Origin: Candidatus Eiseniibacteriota bacterium
GTDB lineage: Bacteria; Eisenbacteria; RBG-16-71-46; CAIMUX01
DNA: 64,000 nucleotides
Direction: 5' to 3'
Assembly: GCA_903844735.1 (NCBI GenBank)
Contig: CAIMUX010000021.1
Span: 1-64,000 of the forward strand
Shown here: positions 48,838 to 61,006 of the stretch, piece by piece
Numbering within the stretch: the stretch's first letter is position 1
How the letters are laid out: every line of letters begins with the position of its first letter
The notes under the pieces: generated by a model
What the model was told of the DNA's origin: nothing
What the model saw: only the letters and a program-made list of their open reading frames with translations
The model's database searches: none
Made by a program: the position numbers and the translations under genes

Positions 48838-48851
48838 ACTGACCGGTCAGT
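48838..48851. promoter_or_regulatory. Perfect palindrome before the heme operon (TetR-type operator)
   Basis: ACTGACCGGTCAGT is an exact 14-bp inverted repeat, ending 87 bp before the hemX start. TetR-family repressors bind palindromes of this size and type. The operon it precedes encodes a TetR-HemD fusion, so an autoregulatory operator is likely. The TTGAAC just before it could be a -35 element overlapped by the site. Confidence 0.6.
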
Positions 48852-48938: not shown

Positions 48939-49799
48939 ATGAACCCTTCCATCTACCCGTTCAATCACATCCTGCCGGTTTTCCGGTGCGCCGTGCCGAC
49001 GCTCTACATCGTGACGCTGGCTCTTTACGGCCTGCACTTCTTCGGCAAGGCTCGGCGCTGGGCCGGCTTCGCCCGGCCCGCCTTTTCCGTCACCTTGGCG
49101 ATCCATGCCCTTTACCTCGCTGATTTTGTCCTTGCCCATCGGCGGATCCCCCTGGCCTCCGCGCCGGAGGTCCTCACGGTGGTGGCGTTCATGACCGGCA
49201 TCGCCTACTTCTGGGTGGAGACCCACACCCGCGACCTTTCCACAGGCGTGTTCCTGCTCGCTTTCACAACCCTGGTGCAGTTCGCCTCCTCGGGGCGAAT
49301 CGTTCTCGACCTGCAGGTGTCTGAACTGCTGCGCATGCCGCTCTTCGGCATTCATACCGGCGCCGCCATCCTCGGCTACTCCGCTTTCGCGGTCTCGGCG
49401 ATCTACGGGGCTCTTTTCCTGCTGCTGTACCACGAACTGAAGTCGACCCACTTCGGTCTCTTCTACCGGCGCATGCCGCCGCTGGAGGTCCTGGGGCAGA
49501 TGAACATCCGCGCGGCGGTCCTCGGACTGGGCTCCCTGACCGTCGCGATCGCGGCCGGGGTCCTCTGGGCCTGCCGGCTCTACCCGGGGTTCGCGAGGGA
49601 TCCGATGTTTCTCTTCACCCTGGTGGTCTGGGTCATCTATGCCGCCACGGTGTTCGCCTGGTACCGCCTCGGCTGGCGCGGCAAGCGGGCGATCTATCTG
49701 TCCATCTGCGGGTTCGTCCTCATGGGGCTGGCGCTGGTGGCGGTCAGCGCCTTCGTTCACAGTTTCCATCGCTTCGGCAGCCACACATGGACCTCGTAG
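48939..49799 (+). CDS. hemX: HemX/CcsA-like cytochrome c assembly-type membrane protein
   Basis: The 286-residue protein has about eight TM helices and the CcsA/HemX pattern, including FGIHTGAAILGYSAFAVSAI, with a conserved His and a nearby LLLYHELKSTHFG. HemX affects glutamyl-tRNA reductase level in Bacillus, and CcsA-like proteins handle heme in cytochrome c maturation. TGGAG lies before the ATG. It is the first gene of the heme operon and overlaps hemA by 13 bp, which favours the HemX reading. Confidence 0.8.
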   Translation: MNPSIYPFNHILPVFRCAVPTLYIVTLALYGLHFFGKARRWAGFARPAFSVTLAIHALYLADFVLAHRRIPLASAPEVLTVVAFMTGIAYFWVETHTRDLSTGVFLLAFTTLVQFASSGRIVLDLQVSELLRMPLFGIHTGAAILGYSAFAVSAIYGALFLLLYHELKSTHFGLFYRRMPPLEVLGQMNIRAAVLGLGSLTVAIAAGVLWACRLYPGFARDPMFLFTLVVWVIYAATVFAWYRLGWRGKRAIYLSICGFVLMGLALVAVSAFVHSFHRFGSHTWTS

Positions 49800-51076
49800 T
49801 CATCGGCCTCAGCCATCACACGGCCTCAGTGGCCCTGCGCGAACAGATCGCCTTCACGCATCAGCAGGCGGAGGATACCCTGCGCACCGCCGGATCCGAG
49901 GACAGGATGCCGGAGCGACTGCTGCTCTCCACCTGCAATCGGACCGAGCTGTACGCGTTGGCAGACACACCCGCGACAGGCCACGAACTCTTCCTCGATC
50001 TGGTGCGCCGGCACCGGGGGATCGAGCTGGCCTCCCACGCCGACACGCTGTATATCCGCCACGGGCGCGAGATGGTGGAGCACCTCTTTCGCGTGGCCAG
50101 CTCCATCGATTCGATGATCGTGGGCGAGGTGCAGATCCTCGGGCAGGTGCATGACGCGTTCGAGATCGCTCGCCGCGCCGGCTCCACCGGGCCGCTCATG
50201 CACCGGCTCCTCGATGCCGCCTTCCGCGTCGGCAAGCGCGTGCGCACCGAGACCTCAATCGCCATCGGCGCCGTCTCCGTGAGCTACGCCGCGGTCACCC
50301 TCGCCTCGCGTATCTTCTCCGATCTGGGCAAGCGCAGCGCATTGCTCGTCGGCTCCGGGGAAACCGGCGCCCTTGCCGCCCGCCGCCTTCTGGAGATGGG
50401 GATCGGCCGGATGACGGTCACAAACCGCACGTTCGAGCGGGCAGCAGCGCTGGCGGAGGAGCTGCGTGCCGAGGCTGTGCCGTTCGAGTCGCTGGAGACG
50501 GCCCTGCGGACATCCAGCATCCTGGTCACCGCCACCGCATCGCCCGATCCGATCATCCGTAGCGACCTTGTGAAACGGGTCCTGGCCGGACGGAAGAACC
50601 GGCCGCTCCTCATTCTCGACATCGCCGTGCCGCGCGATGTCGAACCCTCTGTGCGCGAGATCCCCAACGTCTTCCTGTACGACATCGATTCCATCGAGGG
50701 GTTGGTCAAGGAAAACCTGGATCGCCGACGTCGCGAGATACCCCGGGTCGAGGCAATCATTCAGCAGGAGATGGAGCAGTTTCTCGGCTGGTATGCCGGG
50801 CTCGAGGCCACGCCGGTCATTCGCGAGCTGCGCGAGCACTACGAGCTGGTCCGCGCTCGCGAGATGGAGAAGGTTCGGCATCGATTCTGTGAAAAGGACC
50901 GCGAGCAGGTGGAAGCCCTGACCCGCGGCATCGTCAACAAGCTGCTGCACGAACCGACCACCGCCATCCGCGAGCTCCCTCGTGGTGGCGCCGGTTCGCT
51001 CGCCCGGATGGAACTGGTGCGCCGCCTCTTCGGTTTGGCCGGGGCGGGCAGGAAGGACGGAGATAGCGATGCCTGA
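49787..51076 (+). CDS. hemA: Glutamyl-tRNA reductase
   Basis: The 429-residue protein matches HemA: DLVVIGLSHHTASVALREQI, the catalytic cysteine in LLLSTCNRTELYAL, and FRVASSIDSMIVGEVQILGQ. The NADPH-binding domain has ALLVGSGETGALAARRLLEM and VTNRTFERAAALAEEL. The C-terminal dimerisation region is intact. It reduces glutamyl-tRNA to glutamate-1-semialdehyde, the first committed step of C5 heme synthesis. It overlaps hemX by 13 bp and hemC by 8 bp. Confidence 0.95.
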   Translation: MDLVVIGLSHHTASVALREQIAFTHQQAEDTLRTAGSEDRMPERLLLSTCNRTELYALADTPATGHELFLDLVRRHRGIELASHADTLYIRHGREMVEHLFRVASSIDSMIVGEVQILGQVHDAFEIARRAGSTGPLMHRLLDAAFRVGKRVRTETSIAIGAVSVSYAAVTLASRIFSDLGKRSALLVGSGETGALAARRLLEMGIGRMTVTNRTFERAAALAEELRAEAVPFESLETALRTSSILVTATASPDPIIRSDLVKRVLAGRKNRPLLILDIAVPRDVEPSVREIPNVFLYDIDSIEGLVKENLDRRRREIPRVEAIIQQEMEQFLGWYAGLEATPVIRELREHYELVRAREMEKVRHRFCEKDREQVEALTRGIVNKLLHEPTTAIRELPRGGAGSLARMELVRRLFGLAGAGRKDGDSDA

Positions 51077-52133
51077 GGACTCGCGGACACCCGGAAAGCT
51101 CCTCATCGGCTCCCGGGGTAGCGCACTCGCGCTGTGGCAGTCGGAGCACACCGCCGCTTTGTTGCGGGAGCGCCATCTCGGACTCGCGGTCGAGATCCTC
51201 ATCATCGTCACCACCGGCGACAGCATCCTTGACGCGCCGCTGTCCCGCATCGGCGGGAAGGGGCTCTTCACCAAGGAGATCGAAGAGGCATTGCTGGACG
51301 GCCGCGTCGACCTCGCGGTGCACAGTTTGAAAGACCTGCCGACGACGCTCCCAGCCGGCCTCGCCCTGGGCGCCGTTCTGTCCCGCCACGAACCGAGCGA
51401 CGCGTTGATCAGCGCGCGCGGGGAGCACTTCGCCGACCTGCCGAGCGGTGCGCGGATCGGCACCTCCAGTCTGCGGCGTCGCGCCCAGGTGCTGCACGCG
51501 CGCCCCGACCTCGTGGTGGAGAGCATCCGCGGCAACGTGCCGACGCGTATCATGCGCGCTGCCGCGGATGACATGGACGCGGTCATCCTCGCGCGCGCGG
51601 GCGTGGAACGACTCGGCCTCGGTGTGCACATCACCGAAATCCTCTCCGCGGAACTGCTCCTTCCCGCGCCGGGCCAGGGAGCCATCGGCATCGAGATCCG
51701 CGGTGGCGATACGCGGGTGCAGCGATTGCTCGCCGGTCTGCAGGATCCGGTCACACGCTGCGCGGTCGACGCGGAGCGGGCTTTCCTGCAGGCCCTTGGC
51801 GGCGGTTGCCAGGTTCCGGTGGGAGCGTTGGCCCGGGTGGACGGTGCCGACATCCACCTCGATGGCATGGTGGCCGACACGGACGGCGTGCGGCTCTTGC
51901 GGGGCCGGCGTTTCGGCCGTGCCGACGACCCAGCGTCCGTCGGCGAACAGCTCGCGCAAGAGCTGATCGGGCTCGGCGCCGAGGAGATCCTCGCAGAAGT
52001 GGCGCGATCGGCCGGCGGCCGTGGTACTGCCGAGTGTCCCGCGGAGGGAGAGCGGATGGCGATGGCTCCGGAGTTGATGGACCGCCCGGTGGAAGGTCCC
52101 GCGGCAGATCCCCGCCCGGGAGGCCAGACGTGA
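51069..52133 (+). CDS. hemC: Hydroxymethylbilane synthase (porphobilinogen deaminase)
   Basis: The 354-residue protein has KLLIGSRGSALALWQSEHTA, VHSLKDLPTTLPAG, the LRRRAQVLHARPDLVVESIR and GNVPTRI segments, and the cofactor cysteine in ALGGGCQVPVGA (Cys247) that holds dipyrromethane. The family is about 310 long; an extra C-terminal 40 residues, Pro/Gly-rich and probably disordered, separate it from hemD. It condenses four porphobilinogens to hydroxymethylbilane. It overlaps hemA, and its stop overlaps the next GTG as GTGA. Confidence 0.95.
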   Translation: MPEDSRTPGKLLIGSRGSALALWQSEHTAALLRERHLGLAVEILIIVTTGDSILDAPLSRIGGKGLFTKEIEEALLDGRVDLAVHSLKDLPTTLPAGLALGAVLSRHEPSDALISARGEHFADLPSGARIGTSSLRRRAQVLHARPDLVVESIRGNVPTRIMRAAADDMDAVILARAGVERLGLGVHITEILSAELLLPAPGQGAIGIEIRGGDTRVQRLLAGLQDPVTRCAVDAERAFLQALGGGCQVPVGALARVDGADIHLDGMVADTDGVRLLRGRRFGRADDPASVGEQLAQELIGLGAEEILAEVARSAGGRGTAECPAEGERMAMAPELMDRPVEGPAADPRPGGQT

Positions 52134-53611
52134 CGACCGGCATGATCGTCCCCCCACGCGGTCGCCGTCCCGATCCCGGCAAGCGCGAGCGGATCATTGA
52201 GGCAGCCTCCGGCCTTTTCGGCGGGCGCGACCTCGCTTCCGTACGGATGGAAGAGGTCGCCGCACGCGCGGGCGTGGCCAAGGGGACGATCTACCTCTAC
52301 TTCGACTCCAAGGAAGATCTGTACTTCTCCATCCTCGCGACAAGGCTGTCGTCGCTTCTCGACGCGCTCGACCGGGCCTTTCGCGAGGAGGAGGATCCCC
52401 GTCTTCGTCTGCGCAAGTTCCTCGTTCATTCCTCCATGTTCTTGCTCAAGTACCCGGACTTCTTCCGCATGATGCGCAAAGAGGAATCAAGCTTCGCTGG
52501 AGCGCTGCCCGGGCCCGGAGTTGAGGTGGAGCCGCTGCGCGCCCGCCTGCGCAATCTGCTCCGTAGTTTGCTCACCCGCGGCATGGAAGCCGGGCGGATC
52601 CGCACAATGCCGGTGGAAATGACAGCCGACCTCATCTTCGGGGCGTTGGAAGGAACGGTGCGCCGCTGTCTCGACGAGGGAGGCACGCCGCAGACGCACA
52701 ATCAGGCGCCGGCACTTTTGTTTGATTTTGTCTGGCGGGGCGTGCAGGCGGACGGCGTCGGTGTCGCGCCACCGCGATCGGCCGTCCCCGGCTCGACCTG
52801 CATCGAGCGGCTCGGCGGCGCGGTCATCGCGATCACCCGCGAGGAAGAACCGGGCGAGGGTCTCTCCGCGGAGATCGTCCGACTCGGCGGGCGGCCGCTC
52901 CGCATCCCGGTCCTGCGAACGGAGGCTCCGGTCGATGCGGCGGCGCTGCGCGCGGCGGCCCGCGCGGCGGCGGACTACGCGTGGATTGTCTTCACCAGCG
53001 CTCGCGGCGTTGAATCGTTTGCCGCAACCTGGCGCGCGTCGTCGCCCGAAGGGTCCGGCGAGCCTGGGTTCCCCGCGACCACGCGCATCGCCGTCGTGGG
53101 CCCTGCCACCGCGCACCGGGCGAGGAAACTGTTCGGGCGCTGCGACTGCACCGCCGCCGAATCGAGTGGAGCCGGGCTCGCCGACGAGCTGCGGCGACGC
53201 GAAGCCATGGATGGGACGCACATACTCGTGACCCGCGCCGAGGACGGACGCCCGGAGCTGGCAGAAATCCTGCGCGGGACCGGCGCTCTCGTCGACGAGG
53301 TGATCGCCTACCGCACCGTCGCCGCTGTCATCCATGCCGCCCCCATCCGCGCGGCATTGCACACAAGGTCGATCGCGGCGGTGACCTTCGCCAGCCCTTC
53401 CGCCGTGCAGGCCTTCGTCGGCCAGGTCGGTGCCGCCTGGCTGGGCGGCCCCGAAGGGAACACTCTCATCGCCACCATCGGTCCCACCACCACAGCGGCC
53501 GTCCGCGCGCTCGGGCTCGAACCGGTCGCGGAGGCTGACACGCCGTCGCTTTGCGAGCTGGCCCGCGCCGCCGCACGCGCGGTCCAAGCCCAGCAAGGAG
53601 TCACCCCATGA
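52130..53611 (+). CDS. hemD: TetR-family repressor fused to uroporphyrinogen-III synthase
   Basis: The 493-residue protein has two parts in one uninterrupted frame. Residues about 17-205 form a TetR regulator: an HTH at 37-58 ([20 protein letters not shown]) and a helical ligand domain. Residues about 225-490 form Hem[94 protein letters not shown] and [26 protein letters not shown] precedes the GTG. It overlaps hemC and hemB by four bases each, so no start lies between the domains. A heme-pathway intermediate may be the repressor ligand. Confidence 0.85.
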
Positions 53612-54588
53612 GTTTTCCGGTGAATCGGCCGCGTCGACTGCGACGCACGGCGACCCTGCGGCGAATGGTGCGAGAGACGCGCCTCTCGGTCGACGATCTT
53701 GTCCTGCCCCTCTTCGCCATCCACGGCACGAGTGTGCGCGAGCCGATCGCGTCAATGCCCGGCGTCGCCCGGCTCTCGGTCGATTTCCTCGTGGAAGAGT
53801 GCCGCGAAGCGCACGCCCTCGGCATTCCGGCGGTCATCCTTTTCGGCATCCCTCAGCGCAAGGACCCGCTGGGCTCGGAGGCGTATGCCGATGACGGCAT
53901 CGTCTCGCGCGCCATCACCGCGGTGAAAGAAGCCGTGCCCGATCTCGTGGTGTGGGCCGACGTCTGCCTCTGCGAGTACACCGACCACGGGCACTGCGGC
54001 GTCATCCGCGACGGGCAGGTCGACAACGACGCCACTCTGCCCCTGTTGGCCGGCTCCGCGCTCGCCTATGCCCGGGCCGGGGCCGACGTGGTCGCCCCGT
54101 CCGACATGATGGACGGGCGGGTGGGCGCCATCCGCGAGGTCCTGGATGAAGCTGGGTTCGGCGATACCGTGCTCTGTTCCTACGCCGCCAAGTACGCCTC
54201 GGCCTTCTACGGTCCGTTCCGCGAGGCGGCCGGATCCACGCCGCAGTTCGGCGACCGGCTGGGCTATCAGATGGACCCGGCCAACGCCCGCGAGGCGCTT
54301 CTCGAGGTCGCCCTCGACTTGGAAGAAGGGGCGGACATCGTGATGGTCAAGCCGGCGCTGGCCTACCTCGACATCATCCTGCGGGTGCACACCGAGTTCG
54401 AGGTCCCGGTGGCCGCCTACAACGTCTCCGGCGAATACGCGCTCATCTGCGCCGCGGCCGAGCGCAACTGGGTCGACCGCCGCCGCATCGTTCTCGAGAC
54501 GTTGACGTCCATCCGGCGCGCCGGCGCCGACATGATCCTGACCTATCACGCCAAGGAGGTGGCCCAGTGGCTTCGGGAAACCCGTTGA
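53608..54588 (+). CDS. hemB: Delta-aminolevulinate dehydratase (porphobilinogen synthase)
   Basis: The 326-residue protein has [20 protein letters not shown], a zinc-type cysteine cluster ([14 protein letters not shown]), [18 protein letters not shown], the first Schiff-base lysine in [17 protein letters not shown] and the second in [14 protein letters not shown]. It joins two 5-aminolevulinates to porphobilinogen. Three cysteines point to a Zn-dependent active site rather than the Mg-only class. The ATG overlaps the hemD stop. The ribosome site and start of hemL lie within its last codons. Confidence 0.95.
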
Positions 54589-55991
54589 ACACGCCGGAAC
54601 ATCCGTGGGAAGGGCCGCGCAGCGCGGCGTTTTTCGAGCGGGCCTGCCGGGTCATCCCCGGCGGAGTGAACTCACCGGTGCGGGCCTTCCGCGCCGTCGG
54701 CGGCGGGCCGCTTTTCCTCCGCCGCGGACAGGGGGCCAAGGTCTGGGACGAAGACGGCAGGGAGTACTTGGATCTCGTCAGTTCGTGGGGACCGCTCATC
54801 CTCGGTCACGCTCATCCGGCCATTCTGGAAGCGATCGAGCGTGCCGCCCGCGATGGCACGAGTTTCGGTGCGCCGACTCTCGCCGAGGTGGAGTTCGCGG
54901 AAACCATCGTGTCGGCAGTGCCGTCCATCGAAATGGTCCGTCTGGTCAGCTCCGGCACCGAAGCGACGATGAGCGCGGTGCGGCTGGCCCGCGGCTACAC
55001 CGGGCGCGACCTCATCATCAAGTTCGAGGGCTGCTACCACGGCCACGGAGACGCCTTCCTCATCCAGGCAGGATCGGGGGCTGCGACCTTCGGCCACCCT
55101 TCCAGCCCCGGTGTCACTGCGGGTACCGCGCGGGACACACTCAATGCGCCGTACAACGACCTGGCGGCGGTGGAGGCTCTCTGCGCCGAATACCGCGGAC
55201 AGATCGCCGCCATCATCGTGGAACCGGTGGCCGCCAACATGGGCTGCGTCCTGCCGGAGCCGGATTTCCTGGAAGTCCGCGCCGTCTCCGTGGCCGGCCG
55301 GGAGGGCATGATCACTGGCGGCAACATCTCCGAACCCGGCTTCCTCCGGGGCCTGCGCGAGATCTGCGACCGGGAAGGCGCACTGCTCATCTTCGACGAA
55401 GTGATCACCGGCTTCCGCCTCGCCTACGGTGGCGCTCAGGAGCGGTTCGGCGTCCGCGCCGATCTCACGACGCTCGGCAAGATCGTGGGCGGCGGCCTCC
55501 CGGTCGGCGCCTACGGCGGCCCGCGGGAGATCATGAAGAGCCTCGCCCCCGAGGGTCCGGTTTACCAGGCGGGAACACTTTCCGGCAACCCGCTGGCGGT
55601 GGCAGCCGGGCGCGCCATGCTGGCCTGCCTGCGCGACGGCGCGGTGTACAAGAAGCTCGAGTCTCTCGGCGAACGACTGCGCGCGGGAATGGAGCGAAAC
55701 ATCCGGGCCCTGGGCGCGCCCGCGAGCTGGATCTCGATCGCGTCGCTCGGTTGCCTTTACTTCCACGCCGGACCGGTGCGGAGCTGGGCCGAAGCCAAGC
55801 GCGCCGACACGAAGCGCTTCGGGATTTACTTTTGCGAGATGTTGCGGCAGGGGATCTACCTGGCTCCGTCGCAGTTCGAGGCGGGGTTCCTTTCCGCCGC
55901 GCACACGGACGAAGACGTCGACGAAATCATCGCCGCCGGCGGCCAGGCGATGACGGTCGCCCTGGCCGAGATCAAGGCAACAGAGGAGTGA
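54567..55991 (+). CDS. hemL: Glutamate-1-semialdehyde 2,1-aminomutase
   Basis: The 474-residue PLP enzyme shows [77 protein letters not shown] and the PLP lysine in [18 protein letters not shown]. It converts glutamate-1-semialdehyde to 5-aminolevulinate. It is about 40 residues longer than usual, with an insertion around [20 protein letters not shown]. The start is GTG with an ideal AAGGAGGTG inside hemB, giving a 22-bp overlap. Confidence 0.95.
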
Positions 55992-55996
55992 CCCCG

Positions 55997-57046
55997 ATGA
56001 ATGACCTCTTCCTTCGCGCTTGCCTCGGCCAACCGGTCGAGCGCACGCCGATCTGGATCATGCGGCAGGCCGGACGGTACCTGCCCGAGTACCGCGCCGT
56101 TCGGGAGAGACACTCTTTCTGGCAGATGTGTACCATCCCCGAGCTCTGCACCGAGGTGACACTGCAGCCGGTGGACCGGATCGGCGTCGACGCGGCCATT
56201 CTCTTTTCCGACATCCTGGTCCCCTTGGTGGCCATGGGGATGGAGATCGACTTCACCCCGGCGCCGGTCATGGCACGCACCCTGCGCACCGAGGCCGACA
56301 TCGAGTCGCTCCGCTCGGCGGACGGCTCGTCGGTGTTCGGCTCTATCGCGGACGGCGTGCGGATGTTGCGGCGCGAGCTGAACGGTCGGGTTCCGCTGAT
56401 CGGCTTCGCCGGGGCTCCCTTCACCCTCGCCACGTACGCCGCGTGCGGCGGCGGCTCGCGCAACCAGTCCGAGATCCGCTCCATGATGTTTGGCACGCCG
56501 GACCTGGCGCACCGCCTGCTCCGCAAGTTGACCGACGCGATCATCGTCTCACTCCGCTCACAGATTGCGGCGGGCGTGCAGGCGATCCAACTCTTCGACT
56601 CTTGGGCGGGGATCCTCTCCGCCGAGGACTACGAGACATTCGCCCTTCCCTACGCCCGTGAGGTCCTGGCGGCGGTGAAGGCGGTCGACCCGGTGATTCC
56701 CCGCATCTACTTCGCCCCCGGCGCGGCGGGCCTCCTCGACCGGATCGGCACTGTGGGCGCTGAGGTGACGGGCATCGACTGGCGCATCCCGCTCACCCGA
56801 GCCAGGGAAATCCTGGGCGATCGGACGGCGGTGCAAGGGAACCTCGACCCTGGCGTACTCCTCGGCTCGCCGAAGGTGATCGAGGAGAAAGTCATCCGGA
56901 TCCTCGCCGAAGCAAGGGGGGCAAAGGGGCACATCATGAACTTGGGCCATGGGATCCTGCCGGAGACACCGGTGGAGAACGCCGCGGCGTTTGTCGAGGC
57001 GACACATCGGCATTCGGGGCAGAAGACAGTGGACAGTGGGCAGTAG
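55997..57046 (+). CDS. hemE: Uroporphyrinogen decarboxylase
   Basis: The 349-residue protein has the family N-terminus TPIWIMRQAGRYLPEYRAVR, then DAAILFSDILVPLVAMGMEI, GFAGAPFTLATYAACGGGS, IQLFDSWAGILSAEDYE, VQGNLDPGVLL and IMNLGHGILPETP. It removes four acetate carboxyls to give coproporphyrinogen III. GAGGAG precedes the ATG. The last ten or so residues come from intergenic tandem repeats that the frame enters, so the original C-terminus was probably shorter. Confidence 0.95.
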   Translation: MNDLFLRACLGQPVERTPIWIMRQAGRYLPEYRAVRERHSFWQMCTIPELCTEVTLQPVDRIGVDAAILFSDILVPLVAMGMEIDFTPAPVMARTLRTEADIESLRSADGSSVFGSIADGVRMLRRELNGRVPLIGFAGAPFTLATYAACGGGSRNQSEIRSMMFGTPDLAHRLLRKLTDAIIVSLRSQIAAGVQAIQLFDSWAGILSAEDYETFALPYAREVLAAVKAVDPVIPRIYFAPGAAGLLDRIGTVGAEVTGIDWRIPLTRAREILGDRTAVQGNLDPGVLLGSPKVIEEKVIRILAEARGAKGHIMNLGHGILPETPVENAAAFVEATHRHSGQKTVDSGQ

Positions 57047-57161: not shown

Positions 57162-58568
57162 ATGGACATCACGCCGACCCCGTCCCGGTCCACCGCGGAG
57201 CTGCTCGACCTGCTTCGGCGCTACGACCGCCCCGGGCCGCGCTACACGTCGTATCCCACCGCCGTGGAGTTCCATGAGGGGGTCGATGGCGCGACCTACG
57301 AGTCGAAGCTGACCGAAGCCGACGCCGTACCGAACGAGCCTCTCTCCCTCTACTTCCACCTTCCGTTCTGCCGCGAGAGATGCACCTTCTGCGGCTGCAG
57401 CGTGGTCATCACCCGCAAGCCCGAGGTGGTGGGACGCTATCTCGACTACCTGCGGACCGAAATCAAGATGGTGGCCACGCGCCTGCCACATCGACGAACC
57501 GTGAACCAGATTCACTGGGGTGGCGGCACGCCGACGCACCTCGATTCCGCGGGCATGCGCATCCTCTGGGAGGCGATCAGCAGACAGTTCACGCTGCTCC
57601 CCGGCGCCGAGGTGGCCATCGAGGTCGACCCGCGCGTGACCAACCACGAGCAGATCGACACCCTGCGCGAACTCGGGTTCAACCGGCTGAGCATGGGTGT
57701 GCAAGACTTCACCCCCGAGGTGCAGGAAGCGATCGGTCGTCGACAAGGGGCCGATGAGACGGTCGATCTGTTTCGCTACGGCCGAGCCGCCGGCTTCGAC
57801 TCCATCAATGTCGACCTCGTCTACGGCCTGCCGCGGCAGGACCCGGAGAGTTTTCGGCGCAACCTCGAACAGTTGATCCCTCTGCGCCCCGACCGCGTGG
57901 CGGTTTACAGTTTTGCCTTCGTCCCCTGGGTGAAGGCCAACCAGCGCCGTCTCGACCCGACCGCCTTTCCCTCGCCCGAAACGAAGTTCGAGCTATTCCT
58001 GCAGGCTATCGAGGCATTCACGGCCGCGGGGTATGCCCAGATCGGAATGGACCACTTCGCCCTTCCCACCGACGAACTCGCAGTGGCGCAGACGGAGGGG
58101 AGACTTCATCGCAATTTCATGGGTTACACGGTCATGCCCGGCGCCGATCAGCTCGGCTTCGGCATCACCGCCATCGGCGATGTACGCGGCGCCTTCGTGC
58201 AGAATCGCAAGAAGCTCGTGGGCTACTACGATGCGCTGGATGCCGGCATCCTGCCTGTCGAGCGCGGGTACCTTCTCGATGAGGACGACAAGATCCGTCG
58301 CCACGTCATCCTTCGCCTCATGTGTAACTTCTCGATCGACATGAAGGAGGTCGAGTCGCGCTTCGGCATCCGGTTCTCCGACTACTTCGCGGTGGAGCTG
58401 GAGGAGTTGAAGGTTCCGCGGGAGAGCGGGTTCGTGCGCGTGACACCGCGGCGGATCGAGGTGACCGAGCGGGGGCGGCTCTTCATCCGCAACATCGGGA
58501 TGATCTTCGACCGCTACCTGCGGGCCAAACGAGCGGGGGATAATCAGGTCTTTTCACGGACGGTGTAA
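57162..58568 (+). CDS. hemN: Oxygen-independent coproporphyrinogen III oxidase (HemN)
   Basis: The 468-residue radical SAM enzyme has LYFHLPFCRERCTFCGCSVV, which carries the CxxxCxxC cluster plus the extra cysteine of true HemN. It also has IHWGGGTPTHLDSAGMRILW, FNRLSMGVQDFTPEVQEAIG and NVDLVYGLPRQDPESFRRNL. True HemN features, including the N-terminal YDRPGPRYTSYPTA, set it apart from HemW. It forms protoporphyrinogen IX without oxygen, so the pathway can run anaerobically. It lies 115 bp after hemE, behind the repeats. Confidence 0.95.
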   Translation: MDITPTPSRSTAELLDLLRRYDRPGPRYTSYPTAVEFHEGVDGATYESKLTEADAVPNEPLSLYFHLPFCRERCTFCGCSVVITRKPEVVGRYLDYLRTEIKMVATRLPHRRTVNQIHWGGGTPTHLDSAGMRILWEAISRQFTLLPGAEVAIEVDPRVTNHEQIDTLRELGFNRLSMGVQDFTPEVQEAIGRRQGADETVDLFRYGRAAGFDSINVDLVYGLPRQDPESFRRNLEQLIPLRPDRVAVYSFAFVPWVKANQRRLDPTAFPSPETKFELFLQAIEAFTAAGYAQIGMDHFALPTDELAVAQTEGRLHRNFMGYTVMPGADQLGFGITAIGDVRGAFVQNRKKLVGYYDALDAGILPVERGYLLDEDDKIRRHVILRLMCNFSIDMKEVESRFGIRFSDYFAVELEELKVPRESGFVRVTPRRIEVTERGRLFIRNIGMIFDRYLRAKRAGDNQVFSRTV

Positions 58569-58634: not shown

Positions 58635-59600
58635 ATGGCGACGATTCTCTTTCTGAACATGGGTGGTCCATTGACCCTCGACGACGTGCGTCCGTATCTG
58701 CGCAACCTCTTCGCCGACCCTATGCTGTTCGATGTACCGGGCGGCAGCATTCTGCGGCCGATCCTCTCGCGGCTCATCCCGACGGTGCGCACGCGCAAGG
58801 TGCGGCGCGCCTACGCATCGATCGGCGGCGGTTCGCCGTTGTTGCGCATGACGCTCCGACAGGCTGAAGCTCTGCGGATCGAGCTCGTCGCGCGGGGGCA
58901 CGACACGGTGGCGGTCGAGGTGGTGATGCGCTACACCCCGCCTCGGGCCGCGGAAGTGCTGGCCCGTCTTTCCGCGCGGGGAGAGACCCGAGCGCTTGCG
59001 CTGCCGCTGTATCCCCAGGAGTGCCGCGCCACCACAGGATCGAGTCTCGCCGAGCTGGAGTCGTTGCGGCCGCACCTTGCTTCGTCCTTGCAGATCCAGG
59101 TGGTCCGCTCGTGGCACCTCGACCCCGGCTTTCTCGACGCCCTGACCCGGCGGGTCCAGGCCGCCATCGACTCGTTACCCGCGGCGGCACAGCCACGCGC
59201 CACGATTCTCTTCACCGCCCACAGTGTCCCCGAGGCGCTGCCCCGGCAAGGCGACCCGTATGTCCGTCAGGTGAAGGAGACGGTGGCGGCGATTCTCGAT
59301 CGACTCGGCAATCGGCACGCCCATCGGCTCGGATGGCAGAGCCGCACCGGACCGGTGAAGTGGGTCGGCCCCGGCACCGACGCGGTCATCGCCGAACTGG
59401 CCGGCACCGAGGCGGTCGTGGTGGTGCCGGTCTCCTTCGTTTCCAACCACATCGAGACCCTTTACGAAATTGATCTGCTCTTCGGCGAAGTGGCGCGCCT
59501 AGCTGGAATCCGGCACTTCGTTCGGACAGCCGCCCTCGATTGCGAACCCGTCTTCATCGCGGCGTTGGCCGGGCTGGCCGAGCCGTTTCTGGTCGCCTGA
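58635..59600 (+). CDS. hemH: Ferrochelatase
   Basis: The 321-residue protein shows ATILFLNMGGPLTLDDVRPY, RRAYASIGGGSPLLRMTLRQ, ALPLYPQECRATTGSSL, the catalytic histidine in ILFTAHSVPEALPRQGDPY, GWQSRTGPVKWVGPGT and VVVPVSFVSNHIETLYEIDL with the conserved glutamate. It inserts Fe2+ into the porphyrin (protoporphyrin or coproporphyrin). GGAAGGAA precedes the ATG, which is the second of two nearby ATGs and the one in frame. It lies 11 bp before the oxidase gene. Confidence 0.95.
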   Translation: MATILFLNMGGPLTLDDVRPYLRNLFADPMLFDVPGGSILRPILSRLIPTVRTRKVRRAYASIGGGSPLLRMTLRQAEALRIELVARGHDTVAVEVVMRYTPPRAAEVLARLSARGETRALALPLYPQECRATTGSSLAELESLRPHLASSLQIQVVRSWHLDPGFLDALTRRVQAAIDSLPAAAQPRATILFTAHSVPEALPRQGDPYVRQVKETVAAILDRLGNRHAHRLGWQSRTGPVKWVGPGTDAVIAELAGTEAVVVVPVSFVSNHIETLYEIDLLFGEVARLAGIRHFVRTAALDCEPVFIAALAGLAEPFLVA

Positions 59601-59611
59601 GGGAGGGTGGC

Positions 59612-61006
59612 ATGCAGCGAGTGGTCGTCATCGGCGGCGGGATAGCGGGCCTGGCAACCGCCCACGCATTGCTGAGGAGGAGGCCGGACCTCGACCTCGT
59701 CCTTATCGAGGCGGACCATCGCCTCGGTGGCAACATCCGTACGTCGGTCGAGGAAGGCTTCACCCTCGAGTGGGGTGTGAACGGCTTCCTGAACAACGTC
59801 CCGGAGACTTTGGAGTTGGTCGACGACATCGGCATGACGCCGGAGCTTCTTCCATCGAACCAGGCAGCCGCCAGACGCTTCCTCTTTCGTGGCGGGCGGA
59901 CATGGGAGATTCCGCTGAAGCCGCCCTCGTTTTTCCGCTCGGGACTGCTCAGTCGCCGCGGCCGCTTGCGCATCCTCGGCGAGCCATTCGCCCGCCCGCG
60001 ACCGGCCGGTGACGAGACGGTGTTCGCCTTCGCCGCGCGGCGCATCGGACCGGAAGCGGCGCGCGTGATGGTCGACGCCATGGTCTCCGGCGTCTATGCC
60101 GGCGACTCGCGCGTCCTGTCGCTGAAGAGCACGTTCCCGCGCATGGAGGAGATGGAGCGGATCCACGGTAGCCTTGTCAAGGCGTTGATCGCGCGACAGC
60201 GAGCGGCCGGACGTTCGGGAGCGACACCGGCCGGTGGACCGGCGGGACCGGCGGGGGCGCTCACCTCGTTTCGTCACGGGATGGAGTCGCTGGTGATGAG
60301 ACTCGGTGAGCGGATCGGGCCGGAGCGCATTCGGCTCGGCAGGCCGGTGACGGAGGTGGAGCGGGGAAGCAACGACGCTCCTTACATCGTGCGCTCGGCG
60401 AGCGGACAGTTCCCCTGCGACTACGTCGTCGTCGCCGCCCCTGCTCGCCACGCTGCCCGTTTCCTGTTGTCGCTCGACGCGCCGCTGGCGCGGGAGTTGG
60501 AGGGGATCTCCTACGCCGGGCTCGCCGTGGTGGCCCTGGCCTGGGATGAAGCGGACATCGACGCCGCGCCCGACGGGTTCGGATTCCTCGTCCCGCGCGG
60601 CGAAGGGCTGCGCATTCTCGGCTGCCTGTGGGACTCGAGTGTCTTTCCAGGCCGCGCTCCCGCGGGTCGCGTTCTCGTTCGAGCCATGATCGGCGGCGCG
60701 CAGGATCCGGAGGCGGCCGGCCTCCCCGACGAAGAGCTGCTCGCCGTCGCCCTGCGGGACCTCGAAGTCTCCATGGGGATCAGCGCGACGCCACGACTGG
60801 TGCGGATCTACCGTCATCCGCTTGGCATCCCGCAGTATCTCGTGGGGCATGCCGACCGGCTGGCCCGGATCAACAATCGACTGCAGGCACTTCCGGGCGT
60901 GGCCCTCGCCGGCAATTCCTACCGCGGGGTGGCGGTGAACAACTGCGCGAAGGAGGCCAAGGAGCTGGGAAGCCGCTGGGCGCCGTACGGCGTCACTTCC
61001 CCGTGA
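59612..61006 (+). CDS. hemG: Protoporphyrinogen/coproporphyrinogen oxidase (HemY/HemG-II type)
   Basis: The 464-residue flavoprotein has the FAD dinucleotide-binding motif RVVVIGGGIAGLATAHALLR, LIEADHRLGGNIRTS, a substrate-binding middle region, and the C-terminal FAD motif VALAGNSYRGVAVNNCAKEA. It is the FAD, oxygen-using oxidase type, alongside the oxygen-independent HemN in the same operon. GAGGGAGGG precedes the ATG. Its stop overlaps a convergent gene by 14 bp, so the heme operon ends here. Confidence 0.9.
   Translation: MQRVVVIGGGIAGLATAHALLRRRPDLDLVLIEADHRLGGNIRTSVEEGFTLEWGVNGFLNNVPETLELVDDIGMTPELLPSNQAAARRFLFRGGRTWEIPLKPPSFFRSGLLSRRGRLRILGEPFARPRPAGDETVFAFAARRIGPEAARVMVDAMVSGVYAGDSRVLSLKSTFPRMEEMERIHGSLVKALIARQRAAGRSGATPAGGPAGPAGALTSFRHGMESLVMRLGERIGPERIRLGRPVTEVERGSNDAPYIVRSASGQFPCDYVVVAAPARHAARFLLSLDAPLARELEGISYAGLAVVALAWDEADIDAAPDGFGFLVPRGEGLRILGCLWDSSVFPGRAPAGRVLVRAMIGGAQDPEAAGLPDEELLAVALRDLEVSMGISATPRLVRIYRHPLGIPQYLVGHADRLARINNRLQALPGVALAGNSYRGVAVNNCAKEAKELGSRWAPYGVTSP

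What the first reader, a model, noticed from the sequence alone, without database searches (positions are those of the whole stretch)
52130..53611. Heme-pathway enzyme fused to its own candidate repressor (TetR-HemD)
A complete TetR-type HTH and ligand domain is joined in one frame, without internal start or stop, to a complete uroporphyrinogen-III synthase. Operon neighbours overlap at both ends, so separate products are unlikely. A DNA-binding biosynthetic enzyme could sense a tetrapyrrole intermediate and set the expression of the whole operon. I do not recall a described protein of this form.
Basis: partly seen in the sequence, partly recalled or inferred. Interest (0 to 1): 0.85.

Follow-up and report, generated by a model that had tools for sequence, protein, structure and literature searches.

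The report
Heme enzyme fused to operon regulator
In a little-known group of bacteria, an enzyme of the heme pathway is built into the same protein as a gene switch of the TetR type, and a matching DNA site in front of the heme genes suggests that this one protein both makes a heme precursor and controls the whole heme operon.

Summary
Window 52130-53611 is one open frame with a complete TetR half and a complete HemD half, the only HEM4 match in its genome, inside a full heme operon. A genome of another family has the same fusion (52% identical, same overlaps), so it is not an assembly error. In a second phylum (5 of 40 genomes) and in one further lineage a related TetR is a separate gene between hemC and hemD; in those five genomes tetR overlaps hemD with a fixed frame offset, so the fusion looks like a frame change in that overlap. 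The palindrome ACTGACYGGTCAGT occurs in exactly one place in each of the seven genomes of the two phyla that have this TetR, always just upstream of the heme operon; the eighth genome has it there with one mismatch. I conclude that the fusion is a self-regulating heme enzyme, most likely a repressor of its own operon. Sign of control, ligand, catalysis and cross-talk between the halves are untested. NnaR (HemD plus winged helix) is the nearest known design but differs in domain order, activity and target.

The parts
52130..53611 (+). TetR-HemD fusion gene (493 aa)
   Evidence: single open frame; Pfam TetR_N and HEM4; homologous fusion in G006
52130..52747 (+). TetR half, residues 1-206; helix-turn-helix residues 22-66
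   Evidence: Pfam; AlphaFold2 model with nine helices between residues 16 and 205, block pLDDT mostly above 90; PDB matches Z about 21
52757..52825 (+). linker, about residues 210-232, no stop, low-confidence in the model
   Evidence: shorter in G006
52862..53551 (+). HemD (uroporphyrinogen-III synthase) half
   Evidence: HEM4 match over nearly the whole profile; letters at T289, S290, T327, Y394, S422 and T453/T454 shared with the human enzyme 1jr2 in the alignment
48838..48851 (.). candidate operator ACTGACCGGTCAGT, about 90 bases before the ATG of the CcsA/HemX-like gene
   Evidence: only exact copy in the genome held, and at the same operon place in 7 of 7 genomes with the TetR in two phyla
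48939..49799 (+). CcsA/HemX-like membrane protein, first gene of the operon
   Evidence: Pfam Cytochrom_C_asm; CcsB model matched under its cut-off
49787..51076 (+). hemA, glutamyl-tRNA reductase
   Evidence: Pfam
51069..52133 (+). hemC, porphobilinogen deaminase
   Evidence: Pfam; stop overlaps the fusion start; start codon chosen by eye
53608..54588 (+). hemB, porphobilinogen synthase
   Evidence: Pfam ALAD; start overlaps the fusion stop
54567..55991 (+). hemL, glutamate-1-semialdehyde aminomutase
   Evidence: Pfam Aminotran_3; aligned with the homologue in G006; enzyme name recalled
55997..57046 (+). hemE, uroporphyrinogen decarboxylase
   Evidence: NCBIfam TIGR01464 above cut-off
57162..58568 (+). 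hemN-type radical SAM coproporphyrinogen dehydrogenase
   Evidence: Pfam Radical_SAM and HemN_C
58635..59600 (+). hemH, ferrochelatase
   Evidence: NCBIfam TIGR00109 above cut-off
59612..61006 (+). protoporphyrinogen oxidase
   Evidence: NCBIfam TIGR00562 above cut-off

Best explanation
The protein is a bifunctional, self-regulating enzyme. Its C-terminal half is the cell's only recognisable uroporphyrinogen-III synthase. Its N-terminal half is a TetR-type regulator that, as a dimer, binds ACTGACCGGTCAGT in front of the ccsA-hemA-...-protoporphyrinogen oxidase operon and most likely represses it, so that the operon makes its own repressor and a pathway-linked ligand tunes it. It arose from a separate hem-operon TetR gene that overlapped hemD, by a change of frame in the overlap. 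Shown here by comparison: the fusion, its conservation, the operator and its link to this TetR group, and the unfused relatives. Inferred: dimer binding, repression, a heme-pathway ligand (heme, hydroxymethylbilane or a uroporphyrin(ogen)), working catalysis and the route of origin.
For: Fusion in two genomes of different families at the same operon place. Sole HEM4 match in the genome. Letters aligned with the human enzyme kept. TetR half complete, nine helices, Z about 21 to solved TetR-family regulators. Separate tetR between hemC and a HEM4 gene in 5 of 40 genomes of a second phylum and in G121. All eight fall in one starred clade, together with two TetRs that have no heme genes nearby. 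The exact palindrome is in one place only, upstream of the hem operon, in 7 of 7 genomes with this TetR; of the other 80 genomes of the two phyla 73 lack it, and 6 of the remaining 7 carry it beside a different TetR gene. In G085, G095 and G086 the site lies three bases, and in G059 one base, after a TATAAT or TAAAAT, where a bound protein would block initiation. H100 is kept in 8 of 8 hem-operon TetRs and in 3 of 68 background TetRs.
Against: No experiment. No recognisable sigma-70 promoter in the window's own upstream region, so the repressor geometry is read from relatives. The nearest solved folds include regulators of fatty-acid or sterol catabolism and a CoA-ester sensor, so the ligand may not be a tetrapyrrole. 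The hem TetRs are not one clade on the tree: two changes of label are needed, as L181 and L183, without heme genes, fall among them. The same palindrome stands beside TetRs of other clades, so the sequence alone does not name the regulator. The genomes are draft assemblies (G006 is rated 75% complete), so 'one place' means in what is held.
Confidence: 0.75

Rival explanations
1. Mere operon fusion without cross-talk: two adjacent, overlapping genes lost the stop between them; the TetR half regulates the operon and the HemD half is an enzyme, but they do not influence each other.
For: In the five separate-gene genomes of the second phylum tetR and hemD overlap with one fixed frame offset, so a single small indel could fuse them. 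In G095 hemD is also fused to its other neighbour hemE, so fusions of neighbours do arise in this operon. The linker differs in length between the two TetR-HemD fusions and is low-confidence in the model.
Against: The fusion has been kept while the two copies diverged to 52% identity, with no start codon near the junction in G006; this is weak evidence for a selected benefit.
Confidence: 0.4
2. The TetR half responds to a ligand unrelated to tetrapyrroles, such as an acyl-CoA or a redox or membrane signal, and couples heme supply to respiration or lipid state.
For: Nearest solved folds include FadR and KstR2 (Z about 21) and AibR (Z 19); NCBIfam matches to FadR, FasR and KstR, all far under cut-off.
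Against: The TetR is tied to the heme operon in three lineages and its only exact operator in the window's genome is there; the invariant H100 and R72 would suit a porphyrin ligand, which is a guess.
Confidence: 0.3
3. The protein is split in the cell, by internal initiation at GTG residue 205 or by proteolysis in the linker, giving ordinary separate TetR and HemD.
For: In-frame GTG at residue 205 after a G-rich stretch; low-confidence linker 210-232.
Against: G006 has no in-frame start between residues 150 and 213; its first one, GTG 214, lies at the start of the HemD domain without an evident Shine-Dalgarno.
Confidence: 0.1
4. Assembly or sequencing error that joins two genes.
For: The genome is a draft (142 contigs, contamination 4.99%).
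Against: A second genome of another family has the same fusion at the same place.
Confidence: 0.01

Closest known systems
NnaR (HemD-OmpR orphan regulator of actinomycetes)
   Same: A HemD-type domain and a DNA-binding domain in one chain (PMC6277429 and PMC11162112, passages read)
   Different: NnaR has HemD first and an OmpR-type winged helix last, is needed for nitrate and nitrite assimilation, is reported catalytically inactive in Streptomyces, and M. smegmatis has another HemD paralogue that is likely the real enzyme. Here TetR comes first, HemD is the only HEM4 match and keeps the aligned residues, and the site lies at the heme operon.
Heme-sensing TetR repressors HrtR, FhtR, HatR
   Same: TetR family; FhtR binds two 14-base palindromes in its target promoter and is released by heme (PMC7858072, passages read; HatRT seen only in the listing)
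   Different: HrtR and FhtR control the heme efflux transporter HrtBA, not heme synthesis, and the passages describe no fusion to an enzyme.
Bifunctional repressor-enzymes BirA, NadR, PutA (recalled)
   Same: An enzyme that also binds DNA and controls its own pathway
   Different: Other folds and pathways; coupling of ligand and DNA binding is established there (recalled) and untested here.
CobA-HemD, HemC-HemD and HemD-HemX fusions
   Same: HemD fused to a pathway neighbour (CobA-HemD and HemC-HemD listed in PMC4921024, passages read; HemD-HemX model; TP_methylase-HEM4 in G121 and HEM4-URO-D in G095)
   Different: Those partners are enzymes or a membrane protein, not a transcription factor.

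Membership tests
TetR family of regulators | N-terminal TetR helix-turn-helix | tested here: met
   TetR_N E 1.6e-14, 53.8 bits over the 24-bit cut-off
TetR family of regulators | Helical ligand/dimer domain giving a nine-helix fold | tested here: met
   nine helices 16-205 in the model, Z about 21; Pfam TetR_C_24 is 26.0 bits against 26.4 in the window, 32.5 in G006
TetR family of regulators | Palindromic operator near its own operon | tested here: met
   comparative only:
TetR family of regulators | Ligand-controlled DNA binding | not testable with these tools
   needs binding assays
Uroporphyrinogen-III synthase (HemD) | HEM4 domain above the curated cut-off | tested here: met
   165.6 bits against 27.5
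Uroporphyrinogen-III synthase (HemD) | Conserved pocket residues of characterised enzymes | tested here: met
   aligned letters shared with 1jr2; S290, T327, Y394, S422 and G451 invariant in the six HemDs; the role of these residues is recalled
Uroporphyrinogen-III synthase (HemD) | Catalytic activity | not testable with these tools
   indirect: only HEM4 match in a genome with a complete heme operon
NnaR | N-terminal HemD with C-terminal OmpR-type winged helix | tested here: not met
   TetR first, HemD last
NnaR | Second, true HemD elsewhere in the genome (as described for M. smegmatis) | tested here: not met
   one HEM4 match in the genome held, 95.77% complete
Self-regulating (trigger) enzyme | Enzyme and DNA-binding domain in one chain | tested here: met
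   domains
Self-regulating (trigger) enzyme | Acts on its own operon | tested here: inconclusive
   conserved candidate operator at the operon; binding itself not shown
Self-regulating (trigger) enzyme | Enzyme state alters DNA binding | not testable with these tools
   needs biochemistry

The most novel reading that the evidence does not exclude
The fusion is a flux-sensing heme repressor: occupancy of the HemD site by hydroxymethylbilane or uroporphyrinogen III changes DNA binding by the TetR half, so an early enzyme of the pathway reads its own flux and sets expression of the whole heme operon. It belongs to a so far undescribed group of hem-operon TetR regulators found here in three lineages.
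Probability: 0.2. Interest if true: 0.9.

Novelty: new variant of a known kind. Interest (0 to 1): 0.72.

Why it matters
A dedicated one-component regulator inside the hem operon, and even inside a heme enzyme, would be a simple way to hold heme synthesis in check. Eight full-text searches gave no listing that describes a TetR-HemD fusion or a TetR gene between hemC and hemD; most subscription papers are not in that library. The fusion gives a compact, testable case in which a pathway enzyme and its operon's likely switch are one molecule, and the separate-gene relatives are a natural control for what the fusion adds. The single candidate operator makes the first test easy. It might also serve as a tetrapyrrole biosensor if such a ligand is confirmed.

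Tried and rejected
Assembly error: rejected, because a second genome has the fusion. NnaR membership: rejected on domain order and single HEM4 match. All hem-operon TetRs as one clade: not shown; two TetRs without heme genes fall among them. A wider regulon in the window's genome: none claimed, as the 12 two-mismatch sites compare with 11 in the reversed control. Promoter scan of the window's upstream region found nothing. L114 (Paenibacillus; hemE, hemH and protoporphyrinogen-oxidase matches 4.5 to 8 kb from the TetR), L110 and L122 (a hemH match about 2.4 and 1.4 kb away) have heme genes in the same stretch but not adjacent, and were not followed up. I recall a TetR-type gene (yhgD) next to hemEHY in Bacillus subtilis; not checked. 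Other lineages: surveys of 385 relatives of G000 and 386 relatives of G121, overlapping sets, added only G121. HemD relatives in viral contigs: none. HrtR, FhtR and HatR are not named in the 50 rows shown; this says nothing either way.

Full report
What is there. Window 52130-53611 (+) is one open frame of 493 codons that begins with GTG in a GTGA overlap with the end of hemC and ends in an ATGA overlap with the start of hemB. Pfam finds TetR_N at residues 22-66 and HEM4 at 245-474, both well over cut-off; the TetR ligand-domain model TetR_C_24 scores 26.0 bits, just under its 26.4 cut-off. The gene lies in a complete heme operon: a CcsA/HemX-like membrane protein, hemA, hemC, the fusion, hemB, hemL, hemE, hemN, hemH and protoporphyrinogen oxidase. 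The HEM4 match is the only one in the genome, which is rated 95.77% complete with 4.99% contamination.

Not an artefact. G006, in the same order but another family, has the same fusion at 52% identity over both halves, in the same place and with 4-base overlaps on both sides. In G006 no in-frame ATG, GTG or TTG occurs between residues 150 and 213; the window has one GTG at residue 205. In the window's phylum 2 of 47 genomes have the fusion: of the 47, all searched with the whole protein, only G006 matched over both halves besides G000 itself. 21 of 47 have a HEM4 match over cut-off; in the loci of the 20 other than G000 (L032-L051, up to 1.5 kb each side) a TetR match appears only in G006. G001, same family as the window, has HemD in an ORF of 291 codons with no hemC match in its locus. 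G002 (same family as the window) and G003 (same family as G006) have no HEM4 match, so the distribution is patchy.

The TetR half. The AlphaFold2 model shows nine helices between residues 16 and 205 with block pLDDT mostly above 90; the HemD half and the linker are low-confidence because no usable HemD rows were in the alignment. The best structural matches are KstR2 and FadR, Z about 21.

The HemD half. Aligned with human uroporphyrinogen-III synthase 1jr2, the window protein shares the letters at T289, S290, T327, Y394, S422 and T453/T454; S290, T327, Y394, S422 and G451 are also invariant in the six HemDs. That these positions line the human active site is recalled. This suggests, but does not prove, a working enzyme.

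Unfused relatives. The best locus of the genome-contig scan, L061 (G059), has a separate 218-aa TetR between hemC and hemD. In its phylum 5 of 40 genomes (G059, G085, G086, G095, G097) have such a TetR, with E-values of 1e-69 or better against 2e-28 for the next TetR; the profile of that call was made from G059 and the two fusions themselves. In all five the order is ccsA-hemA-hemC-tetR-hemD-hemE-hemN; in G059 and G086 the run is broken by a contig end inside hemC or hemA. The HemDs of all five match HEM4 over cut-off; in G095 HemD is in turn fused to HemE. With the start codons that I chose, tetR and hemD overlap by 11, 20, 20, 17 and 17 bases (G059, G085, G086, G095, G097); in G059 and G086 an earlier in-frame start is possible, which would lengthen the overlap. 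In 5 of 5 hemD is one frame on from tetR, whatever the start. G121, from another lineage, has hemA-hemC-tetR followed by a TP_methylase (CobA-type) domain fused to HEM4. A tree of 76 TetRs puts the eight hem-operon TetRs with L181 and L183 in one starred set (95/90); the label 'hem' needs two changes on the tree, and L181 and L183 have no heme genes near them. H100 is present in 8 of 8 hem-operon TetRs and 3 of 68 background TetRs, R72 in 8 of 8 and 8 of 68; they lie in helices 5 and 4 of the model and are candidates for ligand contact.

The operator. The pattern ACTGACYGGTCAGT was searched in all 47 held genomes of the window's phylum and all 40 of the other phylum. It occurs in 14 of 87. All 7 genomes with the hem-operon TetR have it in one place only, directly upstream of ccsA, the first gene of the operon. 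Of the other seven genomes, six carry it within about 115 bases of a TetR match of another clade or unplaced kind and one (G005) inside a long ORF; 73 have none. The reversed control pattern occurs in 0 of 47 and 2 of 40 genomes. G121 has the site with one mismatch, upstream of its ccsA; its genome was not searched for other copies. In the window's genome there is one exact site, none with one mismatch and 12 with two, against 11 in the reversed control. By my arithmetic a fixed 14-base palindrome is expected about 0.02 times in 5.4 Mb at equal base frequencies. In G085 and G095 the site begins three bases after TATAAT, in G086 three bases after TAAAAT and in G059 one base after TAAAAT, which fits a repressor; the window's own promoter is not recognisable. 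All of these are draft genomes, so 'one place' means in what is held.

Reading. I take this as a self-regulating heme enzyme: the only recognisable HemD of the cell carries the DNA-binding switch of its own operon. Fusion, operator and family link rest on comparison; repression, ligand, catalysis and enzyme-switch cross-talk are inferences. The nearest known design is NnaR, HemD plus an OmpR-type winged helix, stated to be restricted to actinomycetes, needed for nitrate and nitrite use and catalytically inactive in Streptomyces (PMC6277429, PMC11162112: passages read). TetR heme sensors such as FhtR are known for heme efflux (PMC7858072: passages read). Fusions of HemD with CobA and HemC are known (PMC4921024: passages read). 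Eight full-text searches gave no listing that describes a TetR-HemD fusion or a TetR gene in the hemC-hemD gap; apart from the four papers named, only listings were seen, and most subscription papers are not in that library, so this is not proof of absence.

Scores. Interest 0.72: a specialist would find a heme enzyme fused to its operon's likely switch, with a conserved single operator, surprising and directly testable; the general principle (BirA, NadR, PutA, recalled) is known, hence 'new variant of a known kind'.

Noticed in passing
window 55257-55331: HemL has a 25-residue in-frame insertion next to a near-duplicated EP(D/G)FL motif, absent from HemL of G006 and G097; a 91-base query over it has no second copy in the genome. 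Origin unexplained; its exact placement is ambiguous.
   Followed up: partly
L176 4238-6094: In G095 HemD is fused to uroporphyrinogen decarboxylase HemE in one 618-aa frame (HEM4 plus URO-D).
   Followed up: partly
L061, L143, L144, L145, L146: tetR and hemD overlap with hemD always one frame on, in 5 of 5 genomes; the fixed offset could serve translational coupling or frameshifting.
   Followed up: partly
L198, L199, L200, L201, L202, L206: The same ACTGACYGGTCAGT palindrome lies beside other TetR genes in six genomes, which fall outside the hem-operon set in the tree: this operator class is shared by distant TetRs.
   Followed up: partly
L181 (G284) and L183 (G347): Two TetRs that cluster with the hem-operon TetRs but lie next to no heme genes.
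   Followed up: partly
L194 9031-10914 and 5984-7780: In G121 hemA is fused to a siroheme-synthase N-part (NAD_binding_7 and Sirohm_synth_M plus GlutR) and hemD to a tetrapyrrole methylase: siroheme genes inside the heme operon. A related palindrome CTGACAGGTCAG lies just beyond hemL at about L194:391.
   Followed up: no
L110, L114, L122: Ordinary TetRs with heme genes 1.4 to 8 kb away, not adjacent.
   Followed up: no
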